This document shows positions 2,110-64,000 of a DNA stretch of 64,000 nt, piece after piece (position 1 is the stretch's first letter; the number at the start of each line of letters is the position of its first letter). Both the position numbers and the translations under genes were made by a program. Below the pieces are notes generated by a model, which was not told where the DNA came from, did no database searches, and saw nothing but the letters and a program-made list of their open reading frames with translations. Source of the DNA: Flavisolibacter tropicus (GTDB lineage Bacteria; Bacteroidota; Bacteroidia; Chitinophagales; Chitinophagaceae); the NCBI RefSeq assembly GCF_001644645.1, contig NZ_CP011390.1, positions 3,840,001-3,904,000 on the forward strand. Reading direction: 5' to 3'.

Positions 2110-2487
2110 AAGCAAAGATATGACTAAGAGAGGCTAGGAGGAAAAAGAGAAAAGGAGAGAAGCGTTTCGCACAGCGCTAAGGGGGAAAGAAAGGAATTTG
2201 AAGATTTCTGATTTCAAGCTTTCACCATTCTCTTCCCAAATCCCAACCAAGAAATCCCAACTTCCCCTAATCTATCCCCTCTTACAGAGGATATCATACC
2301 TTCACTAAACCTTAACTCCTTACTCATTCCTCATCACTCCTTACTCATTCCGCACCATTCACCACTGACTAATGTCTATTGACTTTCCTCCCGTGGACTG
2401 TAGTCTGTCGACAGTTGACTCTCCGAGCTTTCACTTCTCACAGACTCTATTATCACGTATATTGGCAACCTGTAAACACCCTGTGTA
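2110..2487. repeat. Intergenic low-complexity word array
   Basis: No gene is visible in this 378-base gap between divergent genes. From about 2130 it is strand-asymmetric: purine-rich first, then pyrimidine-rich. It is built of recurring words, such as CTCATCACTCCTTACTCATT, TTCACCACTGAC and a GTCCAC-type unit at 2370-2425 (GTGGACTGTAGTCTGTCGAC followed by AGTTGACTC). Similar words recur in gaps across the window. The promoter of the glycosyltransferase must lie near the right end but I cannot place it firmly. Confidence 0.7.
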
Positions 2488-4431
2488 TTGACGGTTTCTA
2501 TTATCATAGTTAGTTATAATGTCAAGTATTTCCTGGAGCAATGCCTGTGCAGTGTGGAGAAAGCCATAAAAGGCCTTGATGCGGAAGTAATTGTAGTGGA
2601 TAACGCCTCAGTAGATGGCAGCGTAGCTTACCTGCAGGAGAGCTTTCCAACAGTCCGTTATATAGCCAGCCAGCAGAACCTGGGTTTTGCCAAGGCTTGT
2701 AATCTGGGCTTGTCGCAGGCTCAAGGTTCTTATATCTTGTTCCTAAACCCCGACACGTTGCTAGCGGAAGATACGCTTGCTATTTGCCTGGATTTTTTCA
2801 ACACTCATCCGCAGGCAGGGGCAATAGGCGTCCGCATGATTGATGGCAGTGGCCAGTTTTTGCGGGAGTCAAAGCGATCGTTTCCTGCTCCGGTCACATC
2901 TTTTTATAAACTTACCGGTTTAGCACGCATTTTTCCACACTCCCGGCGCTTTGGAAAATATCATTTAGGCTATCTGCCCCAACATACCAATCATGAAGTA
3001 GATGTATTGGCGGGCGCCTACATGCTCGTCTCCAAAGCGGTATTAGATGAAGTCGGCTCCTTTGATGAAACCTTTTTCATGTATGGCGAGGATGTGGATC
3101 TAAGCTACCGCATACAAAAAGCCGGCTATAAAAACTATTATGTAGCCGATACTACCATTGTGCACTTTAAAGGGGAAAGCACAAAGCGAGGCAGCCTGAA
3201 CTATGTAAAACTATTTTATCAGGCCATGAGCCTGTTTGTACGAAAGCATTATGGCGGTACAAAGGCAGATATCTTTACTTTTTCTATTCAACTGGCCATT
3301 GGCGTTAGGGCTATGTTGACAGCGGTAGCCAAACTGATTCGTAAGATTGGCCTGCCAGCTATAGATGCCATTCTGATTCTGGTTTGTTTTTGGCTGGTGA
3401 AAAGCATTTGGGCAAACTACGTCCGCCCGGAAGTTCCTTACTCCGCCAAGCTGGTAGGTGTATCGTTCCTGGTTTTTACATTGATATACTTAACGGTGTC
3501 TTATTATGCGGGTTTGTATAACCGCTATTATCGCAAGGCCGTTCTTGTGCGTTCTACCTTTTTGGCTACACTGGTAATTTTAGCTGCTTATGCCTTATTG
3601 CCAGAGCACTTACGGTTTTCCCGGGGCATCCTTGCATTTGGTGCCTTGTTGGCATTTGGGGTATTAAGTCTTTGGCGCTGGATGTTAATAAAGGCCGGCC
3701 TTTTGCAACAACAAATTGAAGACAGGGATAAACCCTATTTATTAGTAGCCGGTACACCTGGCGAATATGAGCGCATACAACAGTTCTTGAATGCCCACAA
3801 ATTGGGCGATAAACTGATTGGCCGAGTGGCGGTTAACGGTGAGGATCCAACGGCGCTGACCACTATTGACCGGGTATCAACAGTAACACTGCCGCTACAC
3901 GCTACCGAGCTTCTGTTTTGTGCCGGCACCTATTCTTATAAAGATATCTTGATGCAACTGCCCAAAATAAAAACCAACCTTCGTTTCAGGTTTCATGCCG
4001 TTGGTAGCAGTAGTATAGTGGGCAGCGACTCCAGCAGCAACAGCGGTGAGGTACTGGCCACCGGATCACATTTTAAACTGGACCGACCCGCCGAGCGGCG
4101 CATTAAGCGACTGGTAGATGTAATGACCAGTGTTTTATTTCTATTCACCACACCACTGCATTTTTTATTTGTTGAAAAGCCAGGTACCTTTTTATATTAT
4201 TGTCTTTTGGTGTTGTTTGGCCGTCGTACCTGGGTAGGGTACGGTACCTGTGCAATGGGTTTACCTCCATTACGGAAAAATATTTTACTACCCAACGGAT
4301 GGCCCAAAAACAAGGCTAATGCAATGCGGGAAGAAAGTATGGCGTTGATAGATCACTATTATGCAAGTGATTATGATGCCATGCAGGATTTGGCGCTAAT
4401 TATGAAAAATTACCAGCATCTTGGCAATTAA
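2488..4431 (+). CDS. Glycosyltransferase family 2 fused to a sugar-transferase-like membrane module
   Basis: The N-terminal 250 residues are a GT2 (rhamnosyltransferase/WcaE-like) domain: VSIIIVSYNV at 3-12, VVDNASVDGS at 36-45, FLNPDT at 85-90 and YGEDVDLSYR at 199-208. About four membrane segments follow (roughly 290-400), then a soluble segment (415-500). A tail with RRIKRLVDVMTSVLFLF at 538-553 and DHYYASDYDAMQDLALIMK near the end resembles the start and end of WcaJ-type polyisoprenyl-phosphate sugar transferases, but I do not see their catalytic core. Translation appears to begin at TTG (2488), because the typical GT2 start MTVSIIIVSYN lies there and no in-frame ATG is near. It probably builds a surface polysaccharide or glycolipid at the inner membrane. 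Confidence 0.85.
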   Translation: MTVSIIIVSYNVKYFLEQCLCSVEKAIKGLDAEVIVVDNASVDGSVAYLQESFPTVRYIASQQNLGFAKACNLGLSQAQGSYILFLNPDTLLAEDTLAICLDFFNTHPQAGAIGVRMIDGSGQFLRESKRSFPAPVTSFYKLTGLARIFPHSRRFGKYHLGYLPQHTNHEVDVLAGAYMLVSKAVLDEVGSFDETFFMYGEDVDLSYRIQKAGYKNYYVADTTIVHFKGESTKRGSLNYVKLFYQAMSLFVRKHYGGTKADIFTFSIQLAIGVRAMLTAVAKLIRKIGLPAIDAILILVCFWLVKSIWANYVRPEVPYSAKLVGVSFLVFTLIYLTVSYYAGLYNRYYRKAVLVRSTFLATLVILAAYALLPEHLRFSRGILAFGALLAFGVLSLWRWMLIKAGLLQQQIEDRDKPYLLVAGTPGEYERIQQFLNAHKLGDKLIGRVAVNGEDPTALTTIDRVSTVTLPLHATELLFCAGTYSYKDILMQLPKIKTNLRFRFHAVGSSSIVGSDSSSNSGEVLATGSHFKLDRPAERRIKRLVDVMTSVLFLFTTPLHFLFVEKPGTFLYYCLLVLFGRRTWVGYGTCAMGLPPLRKNILLPNGWPKNKANAMREESMALIDHYYASDYDAMQDLALIMKNYQHLGN

Positions 4432-4491
4432 TAGGGGTTGCTTCCATAGCAGTGCCTAACTTTATCGTCTTAAACACATTAATCAGGATTA

Positions 4492-6039
4492 GTGGCAAGT
4501 ATTCGCGACTTCAATATTTTCGATTTCAAACTACCTAAGGCTATTGCAGGAGCTTTGCGGCTTGCAGACAATGACCCAAGGAGCCAGCAGTTGCGTGTGT
4601 TGAAAAAGCTTCTAAAAAAAGCACGTTTTACAGCCTTTGGCCAACAGTACCGTTTCGATGAAATTTTATTAAGCAAGCATGCTGGTAAAAAGTTTCAGGA
4701 ACTGGTACCTGTTCACGATTACAACAAAATTTACGAGGAGTGGTGGCAGAAAACATTGGACGGTGTGCCAGATGTAACCTGGCCAGGTAAGATCAAGTTC
4801 TACGCCTTAAGCTCGGGCACCTCGGAAGCAGCCAGTAAATATATACCGGTAACTAAGGATATGTTGCGCAGTAACCGGATCAACTATATCCGCCAACTCA
4901 TTTCTTTAATAAGTTATGAAAAGCTACCCCGCCATGCAGTAACCAAAGGGTTCCTGATGCTGGGTGGTGCCACAGACTTGCAAAAGGGCAAGGCCGGCTG
5001 GTATGCTGGTGACCTGAGTGGCATTTTGATGAAGAACCGCCCTTTCTGGTTTCAAACCTTTTATAAACCAGGCGGCCGCATTGCCAAGATCAAAGACTGG
5101 AATGAAAAGCTTAATGAGATTGTGGAAAAAGCGCCAGACTGGGACATTGGCTACATAGTAGGTGTGCCCGCATGGTGTCAGATGTGTATGGAGATGATCA
5201 TAGAGCATTACAAAGTAGAAACCATACATGATATATGGCCAAACCTGGGCTTCTTTGTGCATGGCGGCGTGGCATTTGAACCATATAAGAAAGGTTTTGA
5301 AAAACTATTGGGTAAGCCCATTGTTTATATAGAGAACTACCTGTCTAGCGAAGGCTTTATTGGCTACCGCGATCGTGAGCATGCTAAGGGCATGAAGCTC
5401 ATTTTGAACAACAACATCTTCATGGAGTTTGTGCCGTTTAACGACAAAAACTTTGATGCAGATGGCAAGATGGTGGAAAACCCCGAAGCATTGATGATCC
5501 ATGAAGTGGAGGAGGGGAAAGAATATGCGCTGCTAATGAGTACGAATGCCGGTGCCTGGCGCTACCTGATTGGCGACACCTTACGGTTTGTTAACCTGGA
5601 ACGCAATGAGGTGGTAATTACTGGTCGTACCAAACACTTCCTGAGCCTGGTAGGCGAGCACCTGAGTGTAGACAATATGAATAAGGCCATACAAGTGGTA
5701 AGTGAAGAACTGAATATTTGTATACCAGAATACACTGTGGTGGGCTTCCCGCATGAAAACTTCTTTGCGCACAAATGGTATGTGGCTTGTAACGACCCCG
5801 TAGATGAAAATGTGCTGCGCGAAAAGATTGACAAATACCTCTGTCAAATAAACGACGACTATGCTGTAGAGCGTACCAGCGCTTTAAAGGATGTATTCCT
5901 GCAAAAACTACCGGAGTCCTATTTTTTTAAGTTCATGGAAACAAAAGGAAAACTGGGTAGTCAGCATAAGTTTCCCCGCGTCTTAAAAGGAAAGATGTTG
6001 CAAGATTGGAATGATTTTTTAGCCTCGCAATCAACTTAG
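4492..6039 (+). CDS. GH3 family (auxin-responsive-like) acyl-acid-amido synthetase homologue
   Basis: Member of the GH3 branch of adenylate-forming enzymes, which in plants join amino acids to jasmonate or auxin. The role in bacteria is unknown. The ATP-binding loop appears as YALSSGTSEAASKYIPVT near residue 110, with VYIENYLSSEGFIGY near 285, a conserved GAWRYLIGDTLRF near 350 and VITGRTKHFLSLVGEHLS around 380. Length 515 fits the family. The start is GTG at 4492, 60 bases after the glycosyltransferase stop; the next in-frame Met is more than 100 residues in and would cut the fold. It may be cotranscribed with the glycosyltransferase. Confidence 0.85.
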   Translation: MASIRDFNIFDFKLPKAIAGALRLADNDPRSQQLRVLKKLLKKARFTAFGQQYRFDEILLSKHAGKKFQELVPVHDYNKIYEEWWQKTLDGVPDVTWPGKIKFYALSSGTSEAASKYIPVTKDMLRSNRINYIRQLISLISYEKLPRHAVTKGFLMLGGATDLQKGKAGWYAGDLSGILMKNRPFWFQTFYKPGGRIAKIKDWNEKLNEIVEKAPDWDIGYIVGVPAWCQMCMEMIIEHYKVETIHDIWPNLGFFVHGGVAFEPYKKGFEKLLGKPIVYIENYLSSEGFIGYRDREHAKGMKLILNNNIFMEFVPFNDKNFDADGKMVENPEALMIHEVEEGKEYALLMSTNAGAWRYLIGDTLRFVNLERNEVVITGRTKHFLSLVGEHLSVDNMNKAIQVVSEELNICIPEYTVVGFPHENFFAHKWYVACNDPVDENVLREKIDKYLCQINDDYAVERTSALKDVFLQKLPESYFFKFMETKGKLGSQHKFPRVLKGKMLQDWNDFLASQST

Positions 6040-6104
6040 TTTTTTGTCTTTTGACAAATGACTTTGTTGGAGTGAGTTGTGAGTTCTATTTTTAGCCTCT
6101 TTGT

Positions 6105-6740
6105 ATGGATGTATTCGTAAAAGGTATCACGTTGGGTTTGCTGCTAAGTATAGCGGTTGGACCGATCCTGTTTACGATTATCAAGCAAAGCATCAATAAT
6201 GGCATCAAGGGCGGACTGGCCTTTGTGCTGGGTGTATCCTTGAGCGATATCTGCCTGGCAGTAGCCTCTAATTTCTTTACCGAACTATTCAATACCCTGC
6301 TGGAGCGGAGAGCGCTGGTGGCCTTTACGGGTAGTGTATTCCTGATTTCGTTAGGCATCTACTTCTTGTTTTTTAAAAAAGTTAAGGCCAATGAAGAAGG
6401 CCAGCAGCTGCTGGTGTTTCGAAAGCGCGATTATGTCAAACTGCTTTTAACAGGCCTGTTAATGAACCTTTTAAATCCCTTCTTGTGGGGATTCTGGCTG
6501 GCCACGGCTACTACGTTTGCAGATCATGTCATCAGGCAGCGTTTCATTATTTTTGCTACCGCATTATGTATTGTACTCACCGCCGATATCTTAAAAGTGT
6601 TGTTGGCTAATAGGATCCGGCAGCGCCTTACGCTAAAGAACATCCAACTCATTAACCGGCTGAATGGGCTTATTTTGATTGGGTTTGGAATAGCCTTGTT
6701 AGTGAGTTTATTGTTTTATAGTGATAAATTGCCGCAGTAA
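6105..6740 (+). CDS. LysE/RhtB family exporter
   Basis: Inner-membrane exporter of the LysE/RhtB superfamily, which generally expels amino acids or similar small metabolites. The 211-residue product has about six hydrophobic segments, beginning with FVKGITLGLLLSIAVGPILF. This has the Gly-Pro of the first helix typical of the family, followed by SINNGIKGGLAFVLGVSLSD. A long central loop has charged residues, and GLLMNLLNPFLWGFWLATAT matches the conserved Asn-Pro helix. Its TAA is immediately followed by the ATG of the transglycosylase gene, so the two are surely cotranscribed. The substrate is not predictable. Confidence 0.88.
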   Translation: MDVFVKGITLGLLLSIAVGPILFTIIKQSINNGIKGGLAFVLGVSLSDICLAVASNFFTELFNTLLERRALVAFTGSVFLISLGIYFLFFKKVKANEEGQQLLVFRKRDYVKLLLTGLLMNLLNPFLWGFWLATATTFADHVIRQRFIIFATALCIVLTADILKVLLANRIRQRLTLKNIQLINRLNGLILIGFGIALLVSLLFYSDKLPQ

Positions 6741-7517
6741 ATGAGCAAGAAGAAACCGGCTGCAAAACCAAAATCCTCTGGAAACCGTTTTTGGTATTGG
6801 ACCAAACGCATTGTCCTATTCCTTTTTTTATCCCAGCTGTTTTATATCATCATTCTAAAATGGGTGAATCCTCCCATTACGATTACCCAGTTAAGTAGTT
6901 GGGTAAGTGGCGATGGCCTCAAACGTGATTATGTAGGTGGCGATGAATTGTCGTTACAAATGAAGCTGGCCGTGATAGCTTCAGAAGATCAATTGTTTCC
7001 CGACCATGGTGGCTTTGACTGGAAGAGCATTAACAAAGCCGTAACACACAACGAAAAAAAGCCGCAACGCATACGCGGGGCCTCCACTATATCACAACAG
7101 GTAGCTAAGAACGTATTTCTCTGGCAAGGACGCAGCTGGATACGAAAAGGTCTGGAAATGTATTTCACTAAGATGATCGAGTTGATCTGGGGAAAGAAGC
7201 GGATACTGGAAGTATACTTGAATGTTATTGAAATGGGTAAAGGCGTCTACGGTGCTGAAGCCGCTGCACAGGCCTATTTTAAAAAGCCGGCGGCTAAACT
7301 TTCCCGTAAGGAAGCAGCTATGATTGCCGCCTGCTTACCCAATCCCAAAAAATACACCGTAAAGCCACTCTCACCTTATGTGGCCATCAAAAGCGGGTGG
7401 GTACAACGCCAGATGGACAACCTGGAAGGTGATGAAGATATTCAGGCGGTGATTAATAAGGCCCGCCCGGAAGGAGCCAAGCAGAATAATGAACAAGGAA
7501 CAAGGAAGAAAGAATGA
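6741..7517 (+). CDS. mtgA: Monofunctional biosynthetic peptidoglycan transglycosylase
   Basis: Glycosyltransferase family 51 enzyme that polymerises lipid II into glycan strands at the inner membrane. A basic N-terminus precedes a single anchor helix (IVLFLFLSQLFYIIILKWV, about 29-47). The GT51 signatures follow in order: ASEDQLFPDHGGFDW with the catalytic Glu, RGASTISQQVAKNVFLW, KKRILEVYLNVIEMGKGVYG with the second Glu, AAAQAYFKKPAAKLS and AAMIAACLPNPKKY. There is no penicillin-binding domain, and length 258 is normal for MtgA. The ATG touches the stop of the LysE-type gene. The C-terminal tail is lysine- and glutamate-rich and runs into low-complexity sequence. Confidence 0.93.
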   Translation: MSKKKPAAKPKSSGNRFWYWTKRIVLFLFLSQLFYIIILKWVNPPITITQLSSWVSGDGLKRDYVGGDELSLQMKLAVIASEDQLFPDHGGFDWKSINKAVTHNEKKPQRIRGASTISQQVAKNVFLWQGRSWIRKGLEMYFTKMIELIWGKKRILEVYLNVIEMGKGVYGAEAAAQAYFKKPAAKLSRKEAAMIAACLPNPKKYTVKPLSPYVAIKSGWVQRQMDNLEGDEDIQAVINKARPEGAKQNNEQGTRKKE

Positions 7518-7702
7518 TGAAGGGAGGAAATATTCAATGCTCAACGCTCAATAATCAATGATTAGTAATGAATAATCATTGATTATTGAAGGAGACCTCT
7601 TCTATCGGCGTCCCTTTCACGTCTCACGTTTGATGTTTCACGATACTCACCACTCACCATTCATCATTCACCAGCCTGGCTCTTGCCGCGCTGCCTTCCC
7701 CT
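7518..7702. repeat. Intergenic mosaic: word array, hairpin and GC-rich palindrome
   Basis: This gap between convergent genes holds a 23-base segment starting GGGAGGAAATATTCAATG at 7522-7544, which recurs exactly at 45600-45622. Next is an AT-rich perfect inverted repeat with 15-base arms AATAATCAATGATTA (about 7549-7587). Then come TCACCATTCATC-type words (7640-7675) and the palindrome CCCCTTTAGGGG (7698-7709), which runs into the end of the neighbouring gene. No gene is visible. The hairpin could end transcripts from either side. Confidence 0.75.
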
Positions 7703-11411: not shown

Positions 11412-11538
11412 GTTGCTTTACTGCGGTATTACTTGTAATACGTTTCTGAGAATAAAAATGGCACGTGCTAAAATGGAGTGTGTTTGTCCTAACTGTGGAC
11501 CGTCGACTGTGGTCTGTGAACTAACTCACATCTCACGA

Positions 11539-28100: not shown

Positions 28101-28544
28101 AGTGTTCGAAACCTTGTTTTTAGCTTAAGTCCCATAGTGGTCCGGCTTTTCGGGGATTAGCTTCTTTGGTTGCCGTAGGTCGCCGCCCCAAGTGTTCGAA
28201 TGTTTTAATGGTTACTTAGAGTTGCACTTTACAGCACTTAACCTTACGTCCACACCAGAAAGCAAAGCATGTAACTCAAAGCGATCCTCGAAATTGAAGT
28301 ATCGGAGTCGTCCAACGCCTTATATTGCGCCCTCGTACTTTCAGCCTCACCTTTTTATCAGAGTCGGGCGGAATATACAGCGCCTGCCGGTTTTCCGACT
28401 ATCAGCTGATTCTATCATCTTTGCTCACTGCACCCACCGTTGGGAAGGATACGCTCAATACGACCCACCTCTCCTGATGAAAGATTAAAGCTGTGGAGTG
28501 TTGCTGTGCGTGGGTGGCCCGGCAGCCGGAGGCGCATTGGGTGG

Positions 28545-28571
28545 TCCCGCACGTGCGGGATTGATTTTTTT
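28545..28571 (+). terminator. Palindrome with T tract
   Basis: Perfect 16-base palindrome TCCCGCAC/GTGCGGGA followed by TTGATTTTTTT. It is terminator-like, although it is over 500 bases past the nearest plus-strand gene (OmpA). Confidence 0.5.
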
Positions 28572-28576
28572 GTTAC

Positions 28577-28597
28577 ACCCGGAGCATGTCGAAGGGT
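28577..28597. repeat. REP-like CTTCGACATGCTC palindromic element
   Basis: Reads ACCCGGAGCATGTCGAAGGG. Its complement, CCCTTCGACATGCTCCGGGT, is close to a type of short palindrome that I recall as common between genes in many bacteria. A single copy here; a related interior appears at the helicase start (19052-19076). Confidence 0.5.
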
Positions 28598-28840
28598 TTC
28601 ATCAAGAAAAAAAGTGGAAAAGGCAGAGGTAGAAGGAGCACTAAAAATAAAAAGTTTCTCATCCAGCTAATCCAATCTAAATCCCACCCATCCGCGGTCC
28701 AAAAAGTTGAAAGGATAGAAGAAGAAAGACCTGTTACATGATCAACCTGGCCATCACGTACTCCAAACCGAAGCAGCAAAACCAACAATGAATGATGTTC
28801 AAGCACTTGGCATATATGTCGCATAAGCCACAATAGCTGG

Positions 28841-35673: not shown

Positions 35674-35866
35674 TAAGTGAATTAGCCTGAGATGTATGAT
35701 AACTCCATTGGGAATTTGAGATTTGGAATTTGAAATTCAACGCCCAGATATCACATATCTCAGTAAGAGGCATCAGGAAAGAAGTTTTTACTAAGATGTG
35801 GAATATCTCTAGCTCTTATAATACTATCCATGGTGTATGATAGCGCACAGGTAAAAGTTCTAACCA

Positions 35867-37891: not shown

Positions 37892-38480
37892 AACACACTG
37901 TTAAGCATATCTACTAATAGATAGCTATAACCAAGCCAGTATTATATACATTGGGAATTTGAGATTTGATATTTGGAATTTGTCGGTATTCGAATTTCTC
38001 CACACTACCAGTCTATTTAATTCAAAAGGATATTATGTGCTAGTTTGTTTCTAAGTGTCAACATTTTGAGGAATGAACGTATAAATCCCTGTAGAATAAG
38101 GCTTTTTCAGGTATGGTTTCATACGTATAGCTCTTGTTTTGGCACGGTTTTGAAAAGAGTAAAAGAAAAACGTGAGTTATGGAAATGCGTAAAGAAAACA
38201 ATGAAAACAAGAGAAGAAGAAAAGTGTTGAACCGACCTACGCTGGTGCGTTCCGTAAAAGCAGGACAAGCATTGAGTGCTACATATTCAAGAGAAACTAA
38301 CACAACTTCTTCATTCGCTTCTCTTTGGAAATCGTAATCCCAACTTCTTTATCAACGCCTTTTTCCTATTCAGAAAAGAATCAACAAAGCGAGCAGGCGT
38401 ATTCGTTTCATTAACAAGAATTGTCAATAGGTACAGTAAATAAAAAAGCCACAAACGGTATGGCTTGTGGCTTTTTTATT
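37892..38480. other. Intergenic region with a word array and the mla terminator
   Basis: 589 bases. At 37950-37982 there is a TTTGAGATTTGATATTTGG-type word array like those at 35711 and 47846. The following 400 bases contain only unconvincing short frames. The terminator of the mla-type operon closes the right end (38442-38478). Confidence 0.55.
38442..38478 (-). terminator. Terminator of the mlaEFD-type operon
   Basis: 13-bp stem AAAAAAGCCACAA / TTGTGGCTTTTTT with a 10-base loop, immediately after the MCE gene stop on the minus strand, ending in a T run. Confidence 0.88.
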
Positions 38481-41063: not shown

Positions 41064-41388
41064 TGATTAATACCGGCTTAATGCGTTTTTTGTTTCGCTG
41101 TGGTTTAAAGGTCTAAGGGCCGCAAAGGTAGGTTTATACCCCTTTTATTCGAACACTTTGGGGCGCTATCGCTATCTTATATTTAAATAGCTCATAAGTT
41201 CTGCCGGTAGCTGTAAAGTGGACAAGAGAGCAAAAACTTATGGTTTTTCAGTGCCGATAAGGAATTGCGGGATGTGGAAAAATAGTAAAATCACCACCCT
41301 CTGACTTCTTCCTTGTCAACCCTTTCCTCTTAATCCTGGTTTTCTTTCTGTGGACTGGCATCTGTCGGCTGTGGACTTTCCCTTGACC
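41064..41388. other. Intergenic region upstream of mlaE-type gene
   Basis: 325 bases. It holds the mla-type promoter region, an inverted copy of the AAGTGTTCGAA word next to GGGGCG (41146-41168), and a GTCCAC-type word array at 41345-41385 (TGTGGACTGGCATCTGTCGG, then CTGTGGACTTTCC). No gene. Confidence 0.5.
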
Positions 41389-42947: not shown

Positions 42948-43089
42948 AAATTAAAAAGCGCAGTAAATGAGAAGACAGTTGACGGTTAATAGTTGACAGT
43001 CAACTGTCGGCAATTAGAGGCTGTTCCCTGCTAACTGCCAACTGTCTTCTGCCAACTAAATACGCACTTCTTAATTGAAAAGAGTATAA
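42948..43089. repeat. Word array of the AGTTGACAGTCAACT type
   Basis: GACAGTTGACGGTTAATAGT, then TGACAGTCAACTGTCGGC and CTGCCAACTGTCTTCTGCCA. Overlapping imperfect copies of AGTTGAC occur on both strands, including the palindrome AGTTGACAGTCAACT. Confidence 0.75.
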
Positions 43090-44182: not shown

Positions 44183-44597
44183 CTGCGAGCGGAGTCCACG
44201 GTTGACGGACGACAGTCCACAGTAGGAAAGTCGATGGTCAATAAGTCATTGGTTATTGAATGAGTAAGGAGTGATGAGCGGGTGAGTGATGAGTCCATAG
44301 TGAATGTATATAGTAGGATAATAGGATACCCCTTTAACTCCCCCAGTAAGTGGCCACATATTAGAGGATTTAGGATTTGTCGTTTAGGATTTGAGATTAG
44401 AAGCCTCCTGTGCGTAATACACCCTTTATGGTTAGGTGCAGGTGACATTATTCAAAAAGGCTTTTTGCATGTAACATATAGCGTAAAGCGTGCAGCTGTT
44501 TTCTCCCGTCAGCTAATCCTCTTTTTCTCCTTTCCCTCTTTCATCCTCCTAGCACAACTATTGCTGCATTCTTATTCTTCACATAAAAACAAAGCAT
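44183..44597. repeat. Intergenic word array
   Basis: 415 bases. At 44190-44225 there is GAGTCCACGGTTGACGGACG, then ACAGTCCACAG (the GTCCAC family). GAGTAAGGAGTGATGAGCGG follows at 44262-44281, and GATTTAGGATTTGTCGTTTA near 44365. Beyond 44440 the sequence is ordinary and leads into the SDR gene. No gene. Confidence 0.7.
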
Positions 44598-45494: not shown

Positions 45495-45804
45495 AGGGGA
45501 GAATGGATCGTAGATTTTAGATTGACGATTGCAGATTGTAGGGAACCGCAAAGACACAATGGTGCTATGAATATTGAACAAGGAATGATGAATGAACAAG
45601 GGAGGAAATATTCAATGCTCAATTCTCAACGATCAATGTTCAATGAAGAGAGATGAAATTGATAAATGAAAAAGCACTCCAACAACGGAGTGCTTTTGTT
45701 TTATAGACATTCCTTTTCTTTTCTCATCATTCTTCCATCGTCTGCTAATCTTCATATTAGCTAATCAGCTAATTATCTTTTCCTCCTTCCTCTCCTTCAA
45801 TCTC
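45495..45804. repeat. Mosaic intergenic region: word array plus terminator
   Basis: 310 bases between convergent genes. TAGATTTTAGATTGACGATT and GCAGATTGTAGGG come first (45511-45542), then the 23-base match to 7522-7544 (45600-45622). GATCAATGTTCAATG, a terminator of the AAAAGCACTCC family (45670-45697) and GCTAATCAGCTAATTATC (45760-45777) follow. No gene. Confidence 0.75.
45670..45697. terminator. Terminator of the dispersed AAAAGCACTCC family
   Basis: Perfect 11-bp stem AAAAGCACTCC / GGAGTGCTTTT with loop AACAAC, between convergent SDR and KTSC genes. It has T or A runs on both sides, so it can serve both. Confidence 0.9.
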
Positions 45805-46056: not shown

Positions 46057-46296
46057 AGTCTCTAAATTTACAAAAAAATCACGCCATTCGCTATTGATAA
46101 AATGCTAAAATGTAGAGCTGTAGAAGGGCTGGAAGAGGCGAGTGGTGAATAGTGAATGGTGAGTTTAAGAGCTGTGAGTTACCAGTTGTAAGAATAGATG
46201 GCGTTTATAGTTATTTGACCCTCTCTTTTTTACTCATAGCTCACAGCTAATAGCTCGCAGCTTCCTTCTTCGTACAGTATTTGCACATACAGATCT
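46057..46296. repeat. Intergenic word array
   Basis: 240 bases between divergent genes. It contains GTGGTGAATAGTGAATGGTG (46142-46161), GAGCTGTGAGTTACC and AGCTCACAGCTAATAGCTCG (46238-46257), all repeats of words seen in other gaps. No gene. Confidence 0.7.
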
Positions 46297-47028: not shown

Positions 47029-47491
47029 GCAGTTTAAAAGTTTATGAGTTCACAAGTTCACATGTTTTATATACCTCTTCAATGAAAAGAATGTAAAAGT
47101 CTTTTTAGTGCGTGGTAGCGTTATTAAACAAGTAAACATGTAAACTTTTGAACAGTAGCAGCTACTGAATTACTAATGACTAGTCAAAAAGTATGTGCAG
47201 AAAAGTGGGGAATGAGAGCTAATTTATCCACAGTTAAAGCGCAAGAAGTACCAAATCATTGTGGAAACTCAACAATACGTAGTTTTCCGATTGACCATAT
47301 TAAAATCCTTTTCCATTTTTGCTTCAGGTTTAACACCCACCTACACCATTACCTAAGAAAGCCTTTCGTTGTAAGAACCAATAATCTCTTGCTAACTACG
47401 TTCCGTTTTCAACTAACGTGCAACTAGTCCCTGAAAAATCATAGCATCCAATAGTCTATGTGTTTTCTTAACGACTTAAACGTACCCTGCT
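47029..47491. repeat. Intergenic region with word array
   Basis: 463 bases between plus-strand genes. The first 130 bases repeat the words GAGTTCACAAGTTCACATG (47045 on) and AACAAGTAAACATGTAAAC (47129 on), matching the array before the ABC-F gene (50680-50715). The remaining 300 bases are AT-rich without an ORF of protein-like character. Confidence 0.55.
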
Positions 47492-47608: not shown

Positions 47609-48069
47609 GGTAATGAAGAGAGAGCCGTGAAACGTGAGTGGTGAATGGTGAGTAGGCAAACGCACGCCCCGGCCCCTAAAGGGGAGAAGGCCAACGCACA
47701 GAAGACCAAACTATCTTATAAAACAAAAGCACTCCACTTAAGGAGTGCTTTTCTATTTACACCCTTCTTCAATAATCAATAATTATTCATTAATAATCAT
47801 TGATTATTGATCGTTTAGAATTGAACATTCCTCCCTTCCTCAATTCCAAATCCCTAATTTCCAATTCCTTCATCATTCCTTTCCTTATCAACCAGTCAAC
47901 CCTTTCCTCTTCATCCTTCTCATCCTATGAATCTTAGCTCTAATTTTCTTCTCCTTTTCTTCTTTGCTCTGCGTGAAATAATAAAGCGCGAAGCGCCTAC
48001 CATTGCATAATAAAAAAACATATTCGTAAACGTTAGTTCTCATTTTTAGATTTGGTAAAACTTACTTCT
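47609..48069. repeat. Mosaic intergenic region
   Basis: 461 bases. CGTGAAACGTGAGTGGTGAA and GGTGAGTAGG words (47627-47657) are followed by the palindrome CGGCCCCTAAAGGGGAGAAG (47670-47689) and CCAACGCACAGAAGA. Then come the terminator at 47725-47752, an AT-rich hairpin with AATAATCATTGATTATTG (about 47792), AATTCCAAATCCCTAATTTC (47840 on) and a pyrimidine-rich tract. The same set of modules is arranged differently at 7518 and 63420. Confidence 0.8.
47725..47752 (+). terminator. Terminator of the dispersed AAAAGCACTCC family
   Basis: Perfect 11-bp stem AAAAGCACTCC / GGAGTGCTTTT with loop ACTTAA, followed by CTATTT. It is positioned to end transcripts from the left. Confidence 0.88.
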
Positions 48070-50570: not shown

Positions 50571-50714
50571 ATCTATTATATAACGTAATGAACCTATATA
50601 CAAGGGCCATTTTTGCTACCTTTGCACGCATTTTAGGGAATAGGAGAAAGGTTGATAAGCTTAAGTGTTGAAAAACAAGCTGTTAGCTGAACCTGTAAAC
50701 CTGTGAACTTGTAA

Positions 50715-52367
<1,653 letters not shown>

Positions 52368-52477
52368 GAAGAGGTCCACAGTTGACAGGCAACAGTCCAC
52401 GGTGAAGTAGTTTGAATGAAGACAAGTTCACTAGTTCATGTAAGGCCTTATGTAGAATTTAAAATAGTAGAATATAG

Positions 52478-53821: not shown

Positions 53822-54186
53822 ACTTCAGATGGTTTAAGTACAAGGATAACTATTTATTTAGAAAGTAGGAATAGAACTAGGATTATTAGGATTGGGGAGG
53901 ATGAGGAGGAGAAGGATTGACAGGTTGAAAAGTTGGAAAGGAAAGGAATAATGAACAAGGAAGCTAAGAGACGAAAAGAGGGAAAGGAAAAAAAGAGGAA
54001 GGAGGAAAAAAACGAAAAGGGGAAATTCGAAATGCGAAAGGAAGAAGAAGGGATTGGGAAGTTGGGATTGGGAGAAAGGTCGGGAATATTCAACACTCAA
54101 TGAACCGGGCACAAAGAGGAGAAGATACTATGGTCTGTAGTACCTTAAATCTTTAGCCATACGAATAAACCCTTTAATTTTATAAG
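53822..54186. repeat. Polypurine-rich tract in intergenic region
   Basis: 365 bases. From about 53880 to 54090 the plus strand is very rich in A and G (GAGGATGAGGAGGAGAAGGA, AGAGGGAAAGGAAAAAAAGA), with repeated GGGATTGGGA words at the right. The same pyrimidine strand is open in two frames of over 80 codons, but these would encode only Phe, Ser, Leu and Pro and are not genes. Confidence 0.75.
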
Positions 54187-56081: not shown

Positions 56082-56379
56082 AATCTAAAAGGTAATAAGT
56101 TTTCTAATGTTTATCATCCAATCGTATTCAAAATTACAAAGCAGCAAGACTATAATCGATACCAAACTCTTGTAGCCTGTCCTCTCCCTTCTCACAGCTC
56201 ATAGCTCACCGCTAGCAGCTCTCACTATTAATACTTCCATTTTCCTTGTTGATCCTTCCTTTTTTGTTTCTTGTCAATAAGTTGCTATCCTTCTTTCTTA
56301 CCGTCTATCCAAGCATTAACTTTATTTAACGAGGATTAACAAACGCTCCGAATATCTTCGTATCCTAGTTCAACCGCTT
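56082..56379. repeat. Intergenic region with word array
   Basis: 298 bases between divergent genes. At 56185-56225 there is CTCACAGCTCATAGCTCACC, then GCTAGCAGCTCTCAC, the AGCTCACAGCT word family also found at 46238. The right end holds the promoter of the receptor-like gene. Confidence 0.6.
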
Positions 56380-59252: not shown

Positions 59253-59281
59253 AAAGCCCCACTTTTTAGTGGGGCTTTTGG
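59253..59281 (+). terminator. Terminator after the receptor-like gene
   Basis: Perfect 11-bp stem AAAGCCCCACT / AGTGGGGCTTT with loop TTTT. It sits between the receptor stop and the convergent 57-residue frame and may serve both. Confidence 0.92.
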
Positions 59282-59656: not shown

Positions 59657-60241
59657 ATGAAGTCACCTTTAATAATGGTTATTGCTTTTCTCTTAGCAAC
59701 TACCGTACACGCACAAATCAAAATACCTTTAAAAGCAAACAACAGTGGTCTTCGCAACGACCTGCAAAAAGTTGTAGAAGCGTACCCGCACCAGTTCCAG
59801 GAGATTCGTGGCAATGAGGTTGCCACCAACCCGCAGAGCGTTGAATATGCCTCCTTAGTAAAACCAGCTGGCGCGCAGGAAGCCACAATAATAAAATACA
59901 GCTCGGGCACAAAGCCGGTATATAGCTGGCAAAGCGTGTTGATGACCACGGAAGACTATGAGGAAGCAGCTAAGAAATACAAGTCTGTTTTCAACCAGTT
60001 AAAGGGCATGAACATAACCTATGTAGTAGATAAGTATACGTTGCGGGGTAAGTATGAAGAGGCCAGTGAGGAAGTAGGTTTTTCTACTAGTGTTCTCACC
60101 CCTGCCTACCCGCCTGCAGCTCTTAAGAAGCTGAAAGTAGAAGTATCTATACAGTTTGAATTCCCGGAGTGGAAAGTATCTGTAGCCGTTTTTGAAAAAG
60201 AAAAAGAAGATGAAGATCAATATGGCGAAGATGCCGAATAA
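59657..60241 (+). CDS. Predicted exported protein, unknown
   Basis: A 194-residue protein with signal MKSPLIMVIAFLLATTVHAQ. The mature part is helical then beta-rich: DLQKVVEAYPHQFQEIRGNE, SVEYASLVKPAGAQEATIIK, ILNQ-like helices around YEEAAKKYKSVFNQLKGMNI, and a last strand set LKVEVSIQFEFPEWKVSVAV. The C-terminus is strongly acidic (EKEKEDEDQYGEDAE). It is not recognised. A strong hairpin terminator follows within 45 bases. Confidence 0.72.
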   Translation: MKSPLIMVIAFLLATTVHAQIKIPLKANNSGLRNDLQKVVEAYPHQFQEIRGNEVATNPQSVEYASLVKPAGAQEATIIKYSSGTKPVYSWQSVLMTTEDYEEAAKKYKSVFNQLKGMNITYVVDKYTLRGKYEEASEEVGFSTSVLTPAYPPAALKKLKVEVSIQFEFPEWKVSVAVFEKEKEDEDQYGEDAE

Positions 60242-60246
60242 TAAAA

Positions 60247-60284
60247 AAAGAAGGGCCCGCAACTATAGCGGGCTCTTCTTTTTG
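60247..60284 (+). terminator. Terminator after the 59.7-kb gene
   Basis: 12-bp stem AGAAGGGCCCGC / GCGGGCTCTTCT (one mismatch) with loop AACTATA, followed by TTTTTG. It lies directly after the stop. Confidence 0.88.
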
Positions 60285-60352
60285 AATTCTGAACTATTAA
60301 TAAAAAAAACACACACGCACTAGTCTCTGTCCTCAATCAACTATCTTTTTTA

Positions 60353-61150
60353 CTATTGCGTAATTCGAATAACATCTCGTCCACCACCGCCGTTAGGCAT
60401 ATTCTTGCGCATTTCCTCCATCAGTTTATTGCGCTCCAGTACAAACTCTTTTTCCGTAAGGCGTTTGCCTTTCTTAGGTTCTTTAATATCTGAAACCTTA
60501 ACCTTTGGCGACAGTTCTACCGCGGTAAACACCTGGCGACCTTTATTCAAATCCAGCTCCAGGATCAGGCCTGGCAGTTGTCCTTGAAACTCGCTAGGGC
60601 CTGCGCTTACTGGAATATCGGTGGCAAACCAAGCTACCACTTGTGCAGTATCGGGCACTTCCTGACGCTTCATCTCGCCATTCTCCATAGACATTTGCAT
60701 ACGTGTGCTGATACGATTGGAGGTGGCCTTACGCACCGGGTGTCCTAATATGGTCTTTGTTTCTTCAGATAACTTCCAGCTAAGGGACCGTACGCTGTCT
60801 TCTACCAGGTATTCCCGGTCAAATAGTTCGCGTTGATCCAGACGCTTTTTGGTATCCAGATTAACGTAGATCACGTCATTTGAGCCGGCCATGCGGAACA
60901 TAAATCCCGGCCCGCTAACAGTGCCATTATCGCCGTCAGCGCTTTGTATAGCTTGCCATAGTGACTGATTATTGGCAAAAAGTAATTCAAAATTGTCTTT
61001 ACGGCTTTGCGGTACCATGTTAGCCACATCGGGGTTCATGTTACGGCGTTGTATTTGAATCGTTCGCTCATATACCACCTTGCCTTCTTTCATCTGGGCA
61101 TTGGCAAAAAGTCCTGAAACAACACAAATAGAAAAGAAGATTTTTTTCAT
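60353..61150 (-). CDS. GLPGLI family protein
   Basis: Exported protein of 265 residues of the GLPGLI family, restricted to Bacteroidota and typically encoded near TonB-dependent receptors. Signal MKKIFFSICVVSGLFANAQ. The name-giving motif appears as QGQLPGLILELDLN with a preceding VAWFATDIPVSAGPSEFQ. GKVVYERTIQIQRRN begins the mature chain, and it ends GGGGRDVIRITQ, a Gly-rich end like that of the receptor-like protein. The start is ATG 61150; an upstream in-frame Met lies in an unlikely leader. It may act with the receptor at 56.4 kb. Confidence 0.9.
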   Translation of the reverse strand: MKKIFFSICVVSGLFANAQMKEGKVVYERTIQIQRRNMNPDVANMVPQSRKDNFELLFANNQSLWQAIQSADGDNGTVSGPGFMFRMAGSNDVIYVNLDTKKRLDQRELFDREYLVEDSVRSLSWKLSEETKTILGHPVRKATSNRISTRMQMSMENGEMKRQEVPDTAQVVAWFATDIPVSAGPSEFQGQLPGLILELDLNKGRQVFTAVELSPKVKVSDIKEPKKGKRLTEKEFVLERNKLMEEMRKNMPNGGGGRDVIRITQ

Positions 61151-61271
61151 CGCAGTTATTTCGCCAAATGTACATGTCTCCATTTTTACATTTAGTTAAT
61201 ACACGTTGCAACTACGTTAATAAAGGTTAAGAGCTGTAGGAGTGGTAAGGAGAAAGGATAATTTTGTAAGA

Positions 61272-62726
61272 ATGCGACCTGCACTTAAGCATATTAACAA
61301 ACATATCAAGTGGATGCCGGTTTTAATGACCCTATCCATTTTAGCCATAGCCGCGTTCCAGATCTACTGGCTAAAGAAGGCCTACGATCGTGAAGCGCGC
61401 ACGCTGGAGATCCGCAGCAATATGGCTTTCCGCGAAACCGTTTACTCCTTGCAGTCCAGCAAGCTAAAGCTCGACAAGCTTATGATGGATAGCACTGGCG
61501 AAAGCGGTCCTATAGTTCGTCATGACCAGATGCCGAGGGAAATGCATTTTGAGGTGCGTAGTCATGAAAAAGCGGCTGAACGAATTTACATGGAGCGGTT
61601 TGCAACAAACGAAGGTTCCCAGCGAGTGATTGTTAGAAGATCAAATGGTGCAGACAGTACCGGTGCGCCCAGAAGAGCATTTAAAGGATGGAACAATCAG
61701 GTAGTGCGTTTCCTTTTTGATATGGAGTCCCCCAAAGACACCATCAAAGTCGCTGAAATTACAACGGCTTTGAAACAACGCCTGGATTCCCAAAGCTTGG
61801 AGGTGCCCTTTGTGGTAACTCGTATGTCGAAACCCAATACCACTGATGAGCGTATTTTTAATGAAGTGACCGTTGGTTTTCGCAGCCCCATTACTTACCG
61901 GCTTCAACTGGGCAATACAGTGCCTTATGTAGTAAACCGTATTATAGCTCCCATTCTGTTGTCCGTTTTCCTCGTTTGCTTTACGGTAGCCTGTTTTTCC
62001 CTGCTCTACCGGAACCTGCAAAAGCAACGCAAGCTGGCAGTTATTAAAAACGAATTTATCAGCAATATCACCCATGAGCTGAAAACGCCCATTGCTACGG
62101 TAAGCGTGGCCATAGAAGCGCTGCGCAGCTTTAACAGCAGTATGGACGCTCAGAAGACAAAAGAGTACCTGGACATATCGGCCAATGAGCTGCAGCGCCT
62201 TTCCCTGCTGGTAGATAAAGTGCTGAAGTTATCCATGTTTGAGAACAAGGAAATTGATCTAAAGTACGAGCCCTTGGATATGCGCCTGCTGATGGAAGAA
62301 GTAACCGCCTCCCTGCGCCTGCAGTTTGAAAAATACAAAGCCAAAGTAGATATAGTAGCCGAAGGCGATACGAGTTTGGAGGGCGACCGGCTGCACTTGG
62401 TGAGCGTTATTTATAACCTGATAGACAATGCCCTGAAGTATAGCAACGGCAATCCACAGATAGACATTCGTCTGAAAGGAGAGGAGCGCACCGTAACCTT
62501 GTTTGTCCGTGACTCCGGCATAGGTATTCCTGCTGAATACCGCGATAAGGTGTTTGAAAAGTTCTTCCGCGTGCCTACGGGCAACGTACACAACGCCAAA
62601 GGGTATGGACTGGGGCTGAGTTATGTGTCTCATGTTATTCAAAAGCACCATGGCATAATTAAGGTAACCTCTGATGAAGGCAGCGGCAGTACCTTTATTG
62701 TATCCTTACCAAAACACAAAGCATGA
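61272..62726 (+). CDS. Sensor histidine kinase
   Basis: Membrane sensor of a two-component system, 484 residues. Two transmembrane helices (about 16-34 and 222-246) bracket a 190-residue extracytoplasmic domain that matches no sensor I know. The kinase core has FISNITHELKTPIATVSVA (HisKA; phosphorylated His near 268), DNALKYSNG (N box), DSGIGIP (G1) and GYGLGLSYV (G2). There is no HAMP domain between the second helix and the kinase. The start is ATG 61272; a GTG ten codons earlier also fits. Its TGA overlaps the regulator ATG (ATGA), so they are coupled. Confidence 0.92.
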   Translation: MRPALKHINKHIKWMPVLMTLSILAIAAFQIYWLKKAYDREARTLEIRSNMAFRETVYSLQSSKLKLDKLMMDSTGESGPIVRHDQMPREMHFEVRSHEKAAERIYMERFATNEGSQRVIVRRSNGADSTGAPRRAFKGWNNQVVRFLFDMESPKDTIKVAEITTALKQRLDSQSLEVPFVVTRMSKPNTTDERIFNEVTVGFRSPITYRLQLGNTVPYVVNRIIAPILLSVFLVCFTVACFSLLYRNLQKQRKLAVIKNEFISNITHELKTPIATVSVAIEALRSFNSSMDAQKTKEYLDISANELQRLSLLVDKVLKLSMFENKEIDLKYEPLDMRLLMEEVTASLRLQFEKYKAKVDIVAEGDTSLEGDRLHLVSVIYNLIDNALKYSNGNPQIDIRLKGEERTVTLFVRDSGIGIPAEYRDKVFEKFFRVPTGNVHNAKGYGLGLSYVSHVIQKHHGIIKVTSDEGSGSTFIVSLPKHKA

Positions 62727-63409
62727 ACAAACCCAAAGTACTCTACGTAGAAGATGAGGTCTTTCTGGCCAAAATTGTTAGTGAAACCCTGGAAAGACGG
62801 GGGTTTGATGTAGTAATGGAAAGCGATGGCGGTCAGGCCATACAGCGATTCCATGAAAGTAACCCCGATGTATGTGTATTGGATATCATGCTACCTAATA
62901 AGGATGGCTTTGATATAGCCGACGAAATACGCGAGCTAAACAGCGAGGTTCCTATCATATTCTTAAGCGCCAAATCGGCCGCCGAAGATGTGGTGAACGG
63001 CTTTAAGCTAGGAGCCAACGACTACATTCGCAAGCCCTTTAGCATGGAAGAGCTCATAGTGCGCATAGAACACGTACTCAAACGCATCCCGATTACTAAA
63101 GAAGGGGATGCAGATGAAATAAAGCTGGGGCAGTATATTTATAATAACCGCCGACAGACCCTTACCAGCGATGAGGAAGAACGTAAACTCTCTTACCGCG
63201 AAAGCGAACTGCTGCGCCTGCTCTATCAAAATAAGGACTCCATTGTGGAACGAAGGGACATCCTAAACCTGCTCTGGGGCAGCGATTCTTTTTTTAACAG
63301 CCGCAACCTGGATGTGTATATCACTAAGCTGCGTAACTATCTAAAGCAAGACCCCTCCCTCCAGATTATTACTATTAAAGGCGTAGGCTACCGGTTTGTG
63401 GTGGAATAA
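62723..63409 (+). CDS. OmpR/PhoB family response regulator
   Basis: A 228-residue two-component regulator. The receiver has Glu10-Asp11, the phospho-acceptor Asp54 in VLDIMLPNKDGFD, Ser82 and Lys104 in YIRKPFS. The C-terminal winged-helix domain, LSYRESELLRLLYQNKDSIV then RRDILNLLWGSDSFFNSRNL and VYITKLRNYLKQDPSLQIITI, ends in GVGYRFVVE. It overlaps the kinase gene by four bases, so the pair responds together. The regulated genes are not evident; the receptor and GLPGLI genes nearby are candidates by position only. Confidence 0.95.
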   Translation: MNKPKVLYVEDEVFLAKIVSETLERRGFDVVMESDGGQAIQRFHESNPDVCVLDIMLPNKDGFDIADEIRELNSEVPIIFLSAKSAAEDVVNGFKLGANDYIRKPFSMEELIVRIEHVLKRIPITKEGDADEIKLGQYIYNNRRQTLTSDEEERKLSYRESELLRLLYQNKDSIVERRDILNLLWGSDSFFNSRNLDVYITKLRNYLKQDPSLQIITIKGVGYRFVVE

Positions 63410-64000
63410 ACAAGGCCAAGCCCACCCCCAGCCCCTAAAGGGGAGAAGGCCAACGCACAAAAGATTAATCTTTCTTCTAATACTTTAGCACTTCATTTAA
63501 TGGAGTGCTTTTTATATTGGGGGAACCCAATTCCAAATCCTTCTTTCTTCCTTCATAATTCCTTGTTCATTATTCCTCTGTCCCTTCACCACTCCTCCTA
63601 CGTTCCTTCATGGCTCCTCCTCTGTGCCTTCATAGTTACTCCGTATAGAAGCCTACCTAACTCCGTATGAAAGCCATAGTAACTCCGTATCTCACCCGTA
63701 CCTTGGCCCTATCTCGGCCGATCCCTCGGCCCCTACCTCACCCGTGCCCGCCCCGTATGTCGTCATCCGCTCACCGCAGTAAACCCATAGAAATAGTAAA
63801 GAAAAGTATAATAAGAAAGACTGAAAACGCCTTAAAGAGAAGAGCCTAAAGATACAAAACTGCCCCTGTAGAGTAAGTCCTTTCTTTACTTGTACCTTGA
63901 ACATTGACAATTGAGCATTGAACATTTCCTCCTCTCATCACTCATTATTCATCATTCTTGTTCCTTGTTCAATATTCCCTTCCTCATTTTCTCCTTTCCT
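63410..64000. repeat. Mosaic intergenic region at the right edge
   Basis: 591 bases without a gene. The palindrome AGCCCCTAAAGGGGAGAAGG (63430-63449) and CCAACGCACAAAAG match 47671-47700. A terminator of the AGCACTTCATT type lies at 63487. ACTCCGTAT occurs three times (63646, 63661, 63679), followed by CTCGGCC-rich words. The end is a pyrimidine-rich word array with ATTCATCATTCTTGTTCC. Confidence 0.75.
63487..63513 (+). terminator. Terminator after the response regulator gene
   Basis: Stem AGCACTTCATT / AATGGAGTGCT (one G-T pair) followed by TTTTTAT. A diverged member of the AAAAGCACTCC terminator family. Confidence 0.8.

What the first reader, a model, noticed from the sequence alone, without database searches (positions are those of the whole stretch)
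2110..64000. Window-wide family of short-word arrays confined to intergenic DNA
Many gene-free gaps contain degenerate near-tandem copies of a few words: GTCCACAGTTGAC, GTGAATGGTGAGT, TTCAATGCTCAAT, AGCTCACAGCTAATAGCTC, AAGTTCACAAGTTCACATG, TTTGGAATTTGAAATT and GATTGCAGATT. The same words turn up at 2110, 7518, 11490, 41345, 42960, 44190, 45500, 46140, 47030, 47620, 50680, 52375, 56185 and 63890, on either strand and in varied order, yet never inside a gene I can identify. They are neither simple tandem repeats nor copies of one consensus. A shared generating process (slippage, gene conversion or a small mobile unit) or a shared function at operon ends is possible, but I can only infer this.
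Basis: partly seen in the sequence, partly recalled or inferred. Interest (0 to 1): 0.72.

Follow-up and report, generated by a model that had tools for sequence, protein, structure and literature searches.

The report
Paired seven-base repeats at gene edges
The gaps between genes in this bacterium carry degenerate runs of seven- or eight-base words, sometimes as a matched, mirror-image pair hugging both neighbouring genes, and related species can write different words at the same spot.

Summary
In a 464-kb sample of the same genome, 4-base matches at a spacing of 7 are 3.3 times shuffled expectation in gaps (z 43) and not raised in genes. One listed word occurs 65 times genome-wide; its reversed control, 0. 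The words are polar: the purine/G-rich strand tends to point from gene edge into gap. Across five congeneric genomes, 85 of 922 gaps carry inverted, edge-hugging arms, against 0.3-0.7% for swapped arms; internal period is 7 in 46 and 8 in 21 of them. Between two sister species, some orthologous gaps have both arms rewritten in a different but again matching word. In two gaps searched genome-wide, arms recur mostly without their centres, arguing against ordinary MITEs there; the window's own genome also disperses composite blocks. Heptamer arrays with the same polarity and inverted pairs are already described for GGGNATC in Xanthomonas (PMC4692102). New here are the many-word vocabulary and joint turnover of arms. 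Best guess: slippage within arms plus template switching between arms; a terminator-like role is possible but unshown.

The parts
897..931 (+). 7-bp array (GATTGCA class), left arm of an inverted pair at the edge of gap 897-1326
   Evidence: arm score 24 and 21
1289..1326 (-). 7-bp array (GATTGCA class, inverted), right arm of the same gap
2311..2419 (-). two 7-bp arrays (CTCATTC and GTCGACA classes), pyrimidine strand on +
7482..7589 (+). GAACAAG then TCAATGC arrays; the first runs out of the 3' end of ORF 6741-7517
7613..7676 (-). CGTGAAA and GTGAGTG arrays in inverted orientation on the far side of the same gap
11492..11522 (-). GTCGACA/GTCCACA array
35711..35741 (+). AATTTGG/AATTTGA array
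37949..37984 (+). AATTTGG/AATTTGA array
41348..41379 (-). GTCCACA-class words, pyrimidine strand on +, seen by eye (below the lag-7 threshold)
42974..43009 (+). GTTGACA array, left arm of an inverted pair in convergent gap 42948-43089
   Evidence: gap folds at -42.6 kcal/mol, z -4.7, 0 of 200 shuffles as good
43021..43055 (-). GTTGACA/GTTGGCA array, right arm of the same pair
44203..44280 (+). GTCCACA then GAATGAGT/GTGATGA arrays after the glyoxalase-like gene
45503..45542 (+). GATTGCA/GATTTTA array
45575..45647 (+). GAACAAG/GAATGAT plus TCAATGC arrays; core of a dispersed block
   Evidence: the 40 scored of 302 candidates for 45560-45700 were the query itself and 39 other places at 77-90% identity
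45669..45698 (.). bidirectional terminator-like hairpin AAAAAGCACTCC..GGAGTGCTTTTG, part of the dispersed block
46134..46166 (+). GTGAATG/GTGAGTG array, divergent gap 46057-46296
46230..46262 (-). AGCTCAC/AGCTAAT array, other side of the same gap
47038..47067 (+). 8-bp array (AGTTCACA), left arm of an inverted pair
   Evidence: fold weak, z -1.2
47121..47153 (-). 8-bp array, right arm of the same pair
47626..47656 (+). CGTGAAA-GTGAGTG array
47763..47817 (.). TCAATAA/ATTATTG array, itself partly palindromic
50690..50714 (+). 8-bp array (AACCTGTA)
52374..52404 (+). GTCCACA/GTTGACA words after the ABC-type ATPase gene
53942..54043 (+). GAACAAG-class and purine-rich arrays
56181..56216 (-). AGCTCAC/AGCTCAT array
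63886..63978 (-). TTGAACA/TTGAGCA then TTCATCA/TTCCTTG arrays: the classes of 45575-45647, inverted

Best explanation
The gaps hold degenerate 7- or 8-bp word arrays, some of which sit as two inverted arms, one against each neighbouring gene, with the purine/G-rich strand usually reading from gene edge into gap. Shown: periodicity, confinement to gaps, polarity, pairing of arms, reuse of word classes across the genome, and rewriting of both arms at some orthologous gaps. Inferred: arms lengthen and vary by replication slippage in 7-8-bp steps; the two arms are kept alike by template switching between inverted copies (quasi-palindrome correction); words spread by ectopic copying at short homologies. 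Coding sequence tolerates little of this, so arrays pile up at its borders. In this genome the process has also dispersed composite blocks, some carrying a terminator hairpin. A possible by-product is a long outer stem that helps to end transcripts between convergent genes.
For: Lag-7 4-mer matches 3.3 times shuffle in gaps, z 43, not raised in genes. Inverted edge arms in 85 of 922 gaps, 5.6-16.5% per genome against 0.27-0.72% for arms swapped between gaps; best internal period 7 in 46 and 8 in 21 of 85. On the inward strand G exceeds C in 62 pairs, C exceeds G in 19 (p 1.8e-6), A/T neutral; inward GC skew is 0.229/0.308 at 3'/5' edges of armed gaps against 0.012/0.117 in plain gaps. In gaps with both segment types, purine-to-pyrimidine order 23, reverse 3. 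Sister species: in the 40 of 133 orthologous gaps whose edges have both diverged, arms still match within a species in 15 of 80 cases (score 14 or more) against about 1% for swapped arms. In two whole-genome searches the matches elsewhere are arms, with centre-spanning matches at 5 other places at 71-79% for one and at none for the other. Template switching between inverted copies is an established mechanism, and its intrastrand form is predicted to favour 5' G in stems (PMC8794818, abstract and passages).
Against: No slippage or template-switch event was observed; there are no strain-level data. The 5' T (U) bias also predicted for intrastrand switching is not seen (A/T neutral). Arm polarity by purine content is carried by G015 (25 to 4) and G006 (13 to 4); in G000 (7 to 5), G003 (5 to 4) and G013 (9 to 6) it is weak. 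Spread of the same words to many gaps needs a further, unshown copying step. Enrichment in convergent gaps suggests some selection. Over all 43 gaps of the first comparison, within-species arms did not significantly beat chimeric arms (p 0.068); the later p 0.0018 is on gaps chosen for diverged edges, which itself lowers chimeric scores.
Confidence: 0.45

Rival explanations
1. The arms are functional 3'-end structures: in RNA they form a long outer stem that ends or insulates transcripts between genes, and selection keeps the arms complementary while the words drift.
For: Convergent gaps are enriched over co-directional ones (29 of 174 against 43 of 541, p 0.002). Of seven chosen stretches folded, five have z -4.4 to -9.4 with 0 of 200 shuffles as good. 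Of 66 armed gaps with centres of 25 bp or more, 7 hold a perfect 8-bp short-loop hairpin, against 1.5% of shuffled centres. In Xanthomonas most heptamer arrays are transcribed (PMC4692102, discussion and passages).
Against: Arms also occur in divergent gaps (13 of 207; difference from the rest not significant, p 0.10), and G>C points inward there too (10 against 1; 3 against 0 among the clearly 7/8-periodic pairs), where inward transcripts are not expected. Selection for pairing alone explains neither the 7/8-bp period nor the shared vocabulary. Two of the seven folds were weak (z -2.0, which used only an inner part of its gap, and -1.2). 59 of the 66 centres have no such hairpin.
Confidence: 0.27
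2. The arrays are parts of dispersed, non-autonomous mobile elements (MITE- or REP-like) with word arrays as terminal inverted repeats.
For: In the window's genome a 141-bp block matches 39 other places at 77-90% (40 of 302 candidates scored). Gap repeats there reach 343 bp at 91% and 861 bp at 73%, not all inspected for arrays; repeats cover 21% of its sampled gap DNA against 4-9% in samples of unequal size from four congeners.
Against: In G015, of two armed gaps searched genome-wide, one gave 54 matches in G015 and 47 in G006 (40 candidates scored in each, self and orthologous gap included), of which centre-spanning ones lie at only 2 and 3 other places; the other gave 1 and 4 matches elsewhere, all in arms. 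In the sampled stretches centres hit another gap in 14 of 85 armed gaps, arms in 35 of 85. Median distance of arms to the genes is 4-16.5 bp, which insertion into an existing gap would not give. Y1 transposases are few and weak in G000 (3) and absent from G008 (84% complete), which has 32 copies of one word.
Confidence: 0.18
3. Each pair is written in one event: a broken gap has both 3' ends extended with the same short repeat, as by a telomerase-like or other repeat-adding polymerase, then joined.
For: It predicts the same word in both arms, a G-rich strand pointing inward at every edge type, unrelated centres, and joint replacement. A bacterial reverse transcriptase, DRT10, makes tandem-repeat DNA (9 nt in one system) by a telomerase-like mechanism (PMC12632851, a preprint; abstract and passages).
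Against: Only 6 of the 18 genomes of the genus (own included) have an RVT_1 match; G000's single hit has a stop in frame and looks to me like a group II intron remnant (from recall, no family search), and G013, rich in arms, has none. DRT10 is protein-primed, and nothing in what I read has it extending chromosomal ends.
Confidence: 0.08
4. Chance or base composition.
For: None.
Against: Shuffled gaps give 0 non-self repeat hits and 6 segments against 122; Ramlibacter and relatives (0.93) and Segetibacter (0.90) show no lag-7 excess by the same method.
Confidence: 0.01

Closest known systems
GGGNATC / GGGGA(C/T)T heptameric repeats of Xanthomonas and Nostoc (Rehm et al. 2015, PMC4692102)
   Same: 7-bp unit, gaps preferred, G-rich strand near the 5' neighbouring ORF whatever its direction, convergent inverted pairs (70 cases in Xcc, 75 in Xac; few in Nostoc), mostly transcribed in Xac, function unknown
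   Different: One G4-forming word type per genome studied there, with singular or paired type usually preserved between Xcc and Xac; here many degenerate words, 7 and 8 bp, few G runs, and words rewritten in both arms at some gaps between sister species
TAACTGA direct repeats (MacGregor 2015, PMC4679880)
   Same: intergenic heptamers, also in five Bacteroidetes, mixed with other heptamers in some
   Different: single word, in the Maribeggiatoa genome mostly just upstream of start codons; only one indirect repeat mentioned
STRR heptamers of cyanobacteria (name recalled; a Calothrix report of three heptanucleotides is cited in PMC4692102)
   Same: tandem intergenic heptamers
   Different: no pairing or turnover data known to me
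MITEs, REP/BIME elements
   Same: dispersed palindromic gap elements; the composite blocks of this genome look similar
   Different: in two searches the centres mostly did not travel with the arms; no link to Y1 transposases found
Bidirectional intrinsic terminators
   Same: sit between genes, form hairpins; some arms enclose one
   Different: arms are long, imperfect and periodic

Membership tests
Heptameric intergenic repeats of the Xanthomonas/Nostoc kind | 7-bp tandem unit concentrated in gaps | tested here: met
Heptameric intergenic repeats of the Xanthomonas/Nostoc kind | G-rich strand reads inward from the nearer gene | tested here: met
   by purine content of arms weak in three of five genomes
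Heptameric intergenic repeats of the Xanthomonas/Nostoc kind | G-rich word able to form G4 (four G runs) | tested here: not met
   3 of 170 arms have four or more GGG runs; 50 of 85 pairs have none
TAACTGA repeats | perfect TAACTGA units just upstream of start codons | not tested
   not searched for as such; absent from the lists of most frequent gap words
MITE | whole element, centre included, dispersed | tested here: inconclusive
   met for a composite block of G000, mostly not met for two G015 gaps
MITE | target-site duplication or empty site | not testable with these tools
   one genome per species held; the species pair used has median protein identity 87-91% by block
REP elements moved by RAYT | Y1 transposase gene flanked by the repeats | tested here: inconclusive
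   Y1_Tnp matched in 14 of 18 genomes, weak in G000, absent in G008; flanks not examined
Bidirectional terminator | stem between genes, enriched in convergent gaps | tested here: met
Bidirectional terminator | stops transcription | not testable with these tools
   needs RNA data

The most novel reading that the evidence does not exclude
Both arms of a gap are written together by one repair-like event that extends the two 3' ends of a broken intergenic region with the same 7-8-nt G-rich word before joining them: a chromosomal, telomere-like repeat addition in bacteria that rewrites gene borders with a lineage-specific vocabulary.
Probability: 0.08. Interest if true: 0.92.

Novelty: new variant of a known kind. 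Interest (0 to 1): 0.56.

Why it matters
Heptamer excess in bacterial gaps has been noted since at least 2007 (as cited in PMC4692102) without a proven cause. Sister species that carry different but internally matching words in the same gap make the cause testable: either a mutational process copies between arms, or selection holds them together. It also warns against reading such words as regulator sites.

Tried and rejected
Simple local slippage alone: rejected, because the same 12-14-mers recur across gaps and a 141-bp block has dozens of relatives. Transcription sense as the cause of polarity: disfavoured, because divergent gaps follow the same rule. RAYT transposition: no simple link. A resident reverse transcriptase: no consistent one. 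Rfam: 0 matches in the window at gathering scores. Sharing of word families between arms in G000 (23 observed, 12.5 permuted) was dropped because two of the classes used are palindromic or nearly so; one search replaces it. One search counted one 10-kb G015 overlap twice; one search is free of it. The first sister-species test over 43 gaps was not significant (p 0.068). Literature: in the listings of ten searches I saw no description of many-word paired arrays or of their joint turnover; only the listed rows were seen, and subscription papers are mostly not held. Papers seen: PMC4692102 (outline with abstract, sections 3, 13, 14, 16, passages), PMC4679880 (outline with abstract, section 10), PMC8794818 (outline with abstract, passages), PMC12632851 (outline with abstract, passages); the rest only as search listings.
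Full report
What was checked. The window is G000:C1:3840001-3904000 of an unnamed, single-contig 5.94-Mb genome. The family is inferred as Chitinophagaceae: a same-genus genome has its match at the same contig coordinates (G004:C232:4761-5489) as a contig titled Chitinophagaceae bacterium (L051). Genes were called by a simple hexamer-scoring ORF script, so gene starts are approximate. Ten window genes were scanned with Pfam: S41 peptidase, YceI, glyoxalase, short-chain dehydrogenase, KTSC, Fapy-DNA glycosylase, ABC-type ATPase, transglycosylase, inositol monophosphatase and an outer-membrane beta-barrel.

Over 21 stretches (464 kb: 20 stretches of 20 kb plus the window), gaps show a sharp excess of 4-base matches at lag 7 (0.0182 against 0.0056 shuffled, z 43) with harmonics at 14 and 21 and smaller peaks at 8, 11 and 22; genes are at 0.0046. 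Strict 7-periodic segments number 122 in gaps and 6 after shuffling. The word GTGAATGGTGAGT occurs 65 times in the genome and its reversed control 0 times; TTGAGCATTGAACA occurs 98 times, control 0.

The words are a vocabulary. Classes written on the purine-rich strand include GAACAAG/GAATGAT, GTGAGTG/GTGAATG, GCTGCAA/GCTGCAC, TCAATGC/TCAATGT, GTTGACA/GTCCACA and AATTTGG (7 bp), AAGTTGAC and TTAGCTGA (8 bp) and an 11-bp class. The two 13-14-mers were counted in 17 congeners: the first is high in G015 (44), G008 (32) and G006 (27) and 0-7 elsewhere, the second 0-8, with reversed controls at 0-1. Frequent 10-mers of G000 (940) overlap those of four congener samples in only 2-19 cases. A lag-7 excess is nevertheless present in all four congeners sampled (1.5-3.1 times; the G013 sample held some N), in Flavobacterium (2.1), Flaviaesturariibacter/Paracnuella (2.9, three loci), two Chitinophaga loci (1.4) and pooled other Chitinophagaceae (1.3-1.7), weakly in Cytophagales (1.2), but not in Ramlibacter and relatives (0.93), Segetibacter (0.90) or four other Flavobacteriia loci (1.08). 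So the period is widespread in part of the phylum while the words are dialects.

Polarity. A fitted orientation of 299 enriched words is 98.6% consistent with their co-occurrence, and the purine-rich orientation lies to the left and its complement to the right in convergent and divergent gaps; co-directional gaps are noisier. De novo segments agree: 121 of 174 point purine-inward across five genomes (58/85, 9/16, 20/29, 21/24, 13/20; segments of near-equal purine content were left out), and gaps holding both types run purine to pyrimidine 23 times and the reverse 3 times.

Paired arms. Some gaps hold two inverted arrays of the same word class against the two genes. Scoring up to 90 bp at each end of each gap of 60-900 bp against each other, 85 of 922 gaps reach 15 or more (G000 12/216, G003 9/74, G013 16/97, G015 31/277, G006 17/258), against 0.27-0.72% when right arms come from other gaps. 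Not all 85 are periodic: the best internal period is 7 in 46 and 8 in 21, and 51 have clear 7/8 periodicity. Median distance to the gene is 4-16.5 bp. Inward strands have G above C in 62 pairs and below in 19, and more purine in 59 against 23; the purine bias is strong in G015 (25 to 4) and G006 (13 to 4) and weak in G000, G003 and G013. Plain gaps show inward GC skew 0.012 at 3' edges and 0.117 at 5' edges, armed gaps 0.229 and 0.308, so part of the 5'-edge skew is background. An earlier version of the test with other taxa gave an excess in pooled other Chitinophagaceae (score 18 or more in 8.3% against 0.19%), a smaller one in Flavobacterium (18.7% against 10.8%) and none in Ramlibacter (8.0% against 8.3%). 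In the window the clear pairs are 897-931/1289-1326 and 42974-43009/43021-43055; the latter gap folds at -42.6 kcal/mol, z -4.7. A third, 47038-47067/47121-47153, is weak (z -1.2).

Sister species. G006 and G015 share 204 adjacent orthologous gene pairs in three syntenic blocks (median protein identity 87-91%); 133 gaps are usable. In 40 both edges have diverged. There, arms match within a species in 15 of 80 cases at score 14 or more, in 3 of 80 chimeric combinations, and in about 1% of swaps. Choosing diverged gaps lowers chimeric scores by itself, so the comparison with swaps is the fairer one. Four such gaps have arms in both species; three use plainly different words (for example CGTCAAG in G006 and GTTCACAA in G015), the fourth related ones. 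Six further gaps have arms in both species with a conserved edge. Over all gaps of the first block the test was not significant (p 0.068). Armed gaps are not significantly more diverged than unarmed ones (11 of 24 against 28 of 101; 8 intermediate gaps left out; p 0.09).

What travels. Whole-genome searches of G015 and G006 with two complete G015 gaps return mostly the arms. The GTGAGTG gap gave 54 matches in G015 and 47 in G006 (40 candidates scored in each, self and orthologous gap included); matches spanning the centre lie at only 2 other G015 and 3 other G006 places, at 71-79%. The GTTCACAA gap matched, besides itself and the edge of its orthologue, one G015 and four G006 places, all in arms. 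In the window's own genome, however, a longer composite is dispersed: the block 45560-45700 with its hairpin. Gap repeats there reach 343 bp at 91%, not all inspected for arrays, and cover 21% of sampled gap DNA, against 4-9% in four congener samples of unequal size. The two layers may have different causes.

Mechanism. The reading I favour is slippage within arms and template switching between arms, with ectopic copying of words; Best explanation says what is shown and what is inferred. Template switching between inverted repeats is an established process (PMC8794818, abstract and passages). A terminator-like role is the main rival and may be added on top. A one-event, two-ended repeat addition fits the polarity and the joint rewriting best in form but lacks an enzyme.

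Known or new. Rehm et al. (PMC4692102) described the same polarity and convergent inverted pairs for a G4-forming heptamer in Xanthomonas, with positions mostly conserved between two species. The present arrays share that architecture, fail the G4 feature, and add many words, 8-bp units and joint rewriting. I therefore file them as a new variant of a known kind.

Noticed in passing
window 28187-28737: A stretch without a called gene that has 17 further matches of 100 bp or more, at 16 places and 71-83% identity, in this genome (34 of 68 candidates scored) and none in 17 congeners; a species-specific dispersed element of unknown kind.
   Followed up: partly
window 63574-63740: 22-bp and 12-bp period pyrimidine-rich arrays, part of a 451-bp repeat shared with another gap at 75%.
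   Followed up: no
window 45669-45698 and elsewhere: A bidirectional hairpin with the stem AAGCACTCC/GGAGTGCTT recurs in gaps of this genome (8 facing pairs in the sample), as if one terminator had been copied.
   Followed up: partly
window 7698, 47673, 63432: CCCCTAAAGGGG recurs next to the arrays (9 times in gaps of the sample, 0 in genes), three times right after a CACGCCCC motif.
   Followed up: no
L263 17509-17593: A sense-strand array AAACTAC/AAACGAC directly before a start codon in both G006 and G015, more like the TAACTGA arrangement than like the paired arms.
   Followed up: no
L314 1500-2270: A reverse transcriptase fragment with an in-frame stop, the only RVT_1 match in this genome; it looks like a group II intron remnant (the label is from recall).
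   Followed up: no
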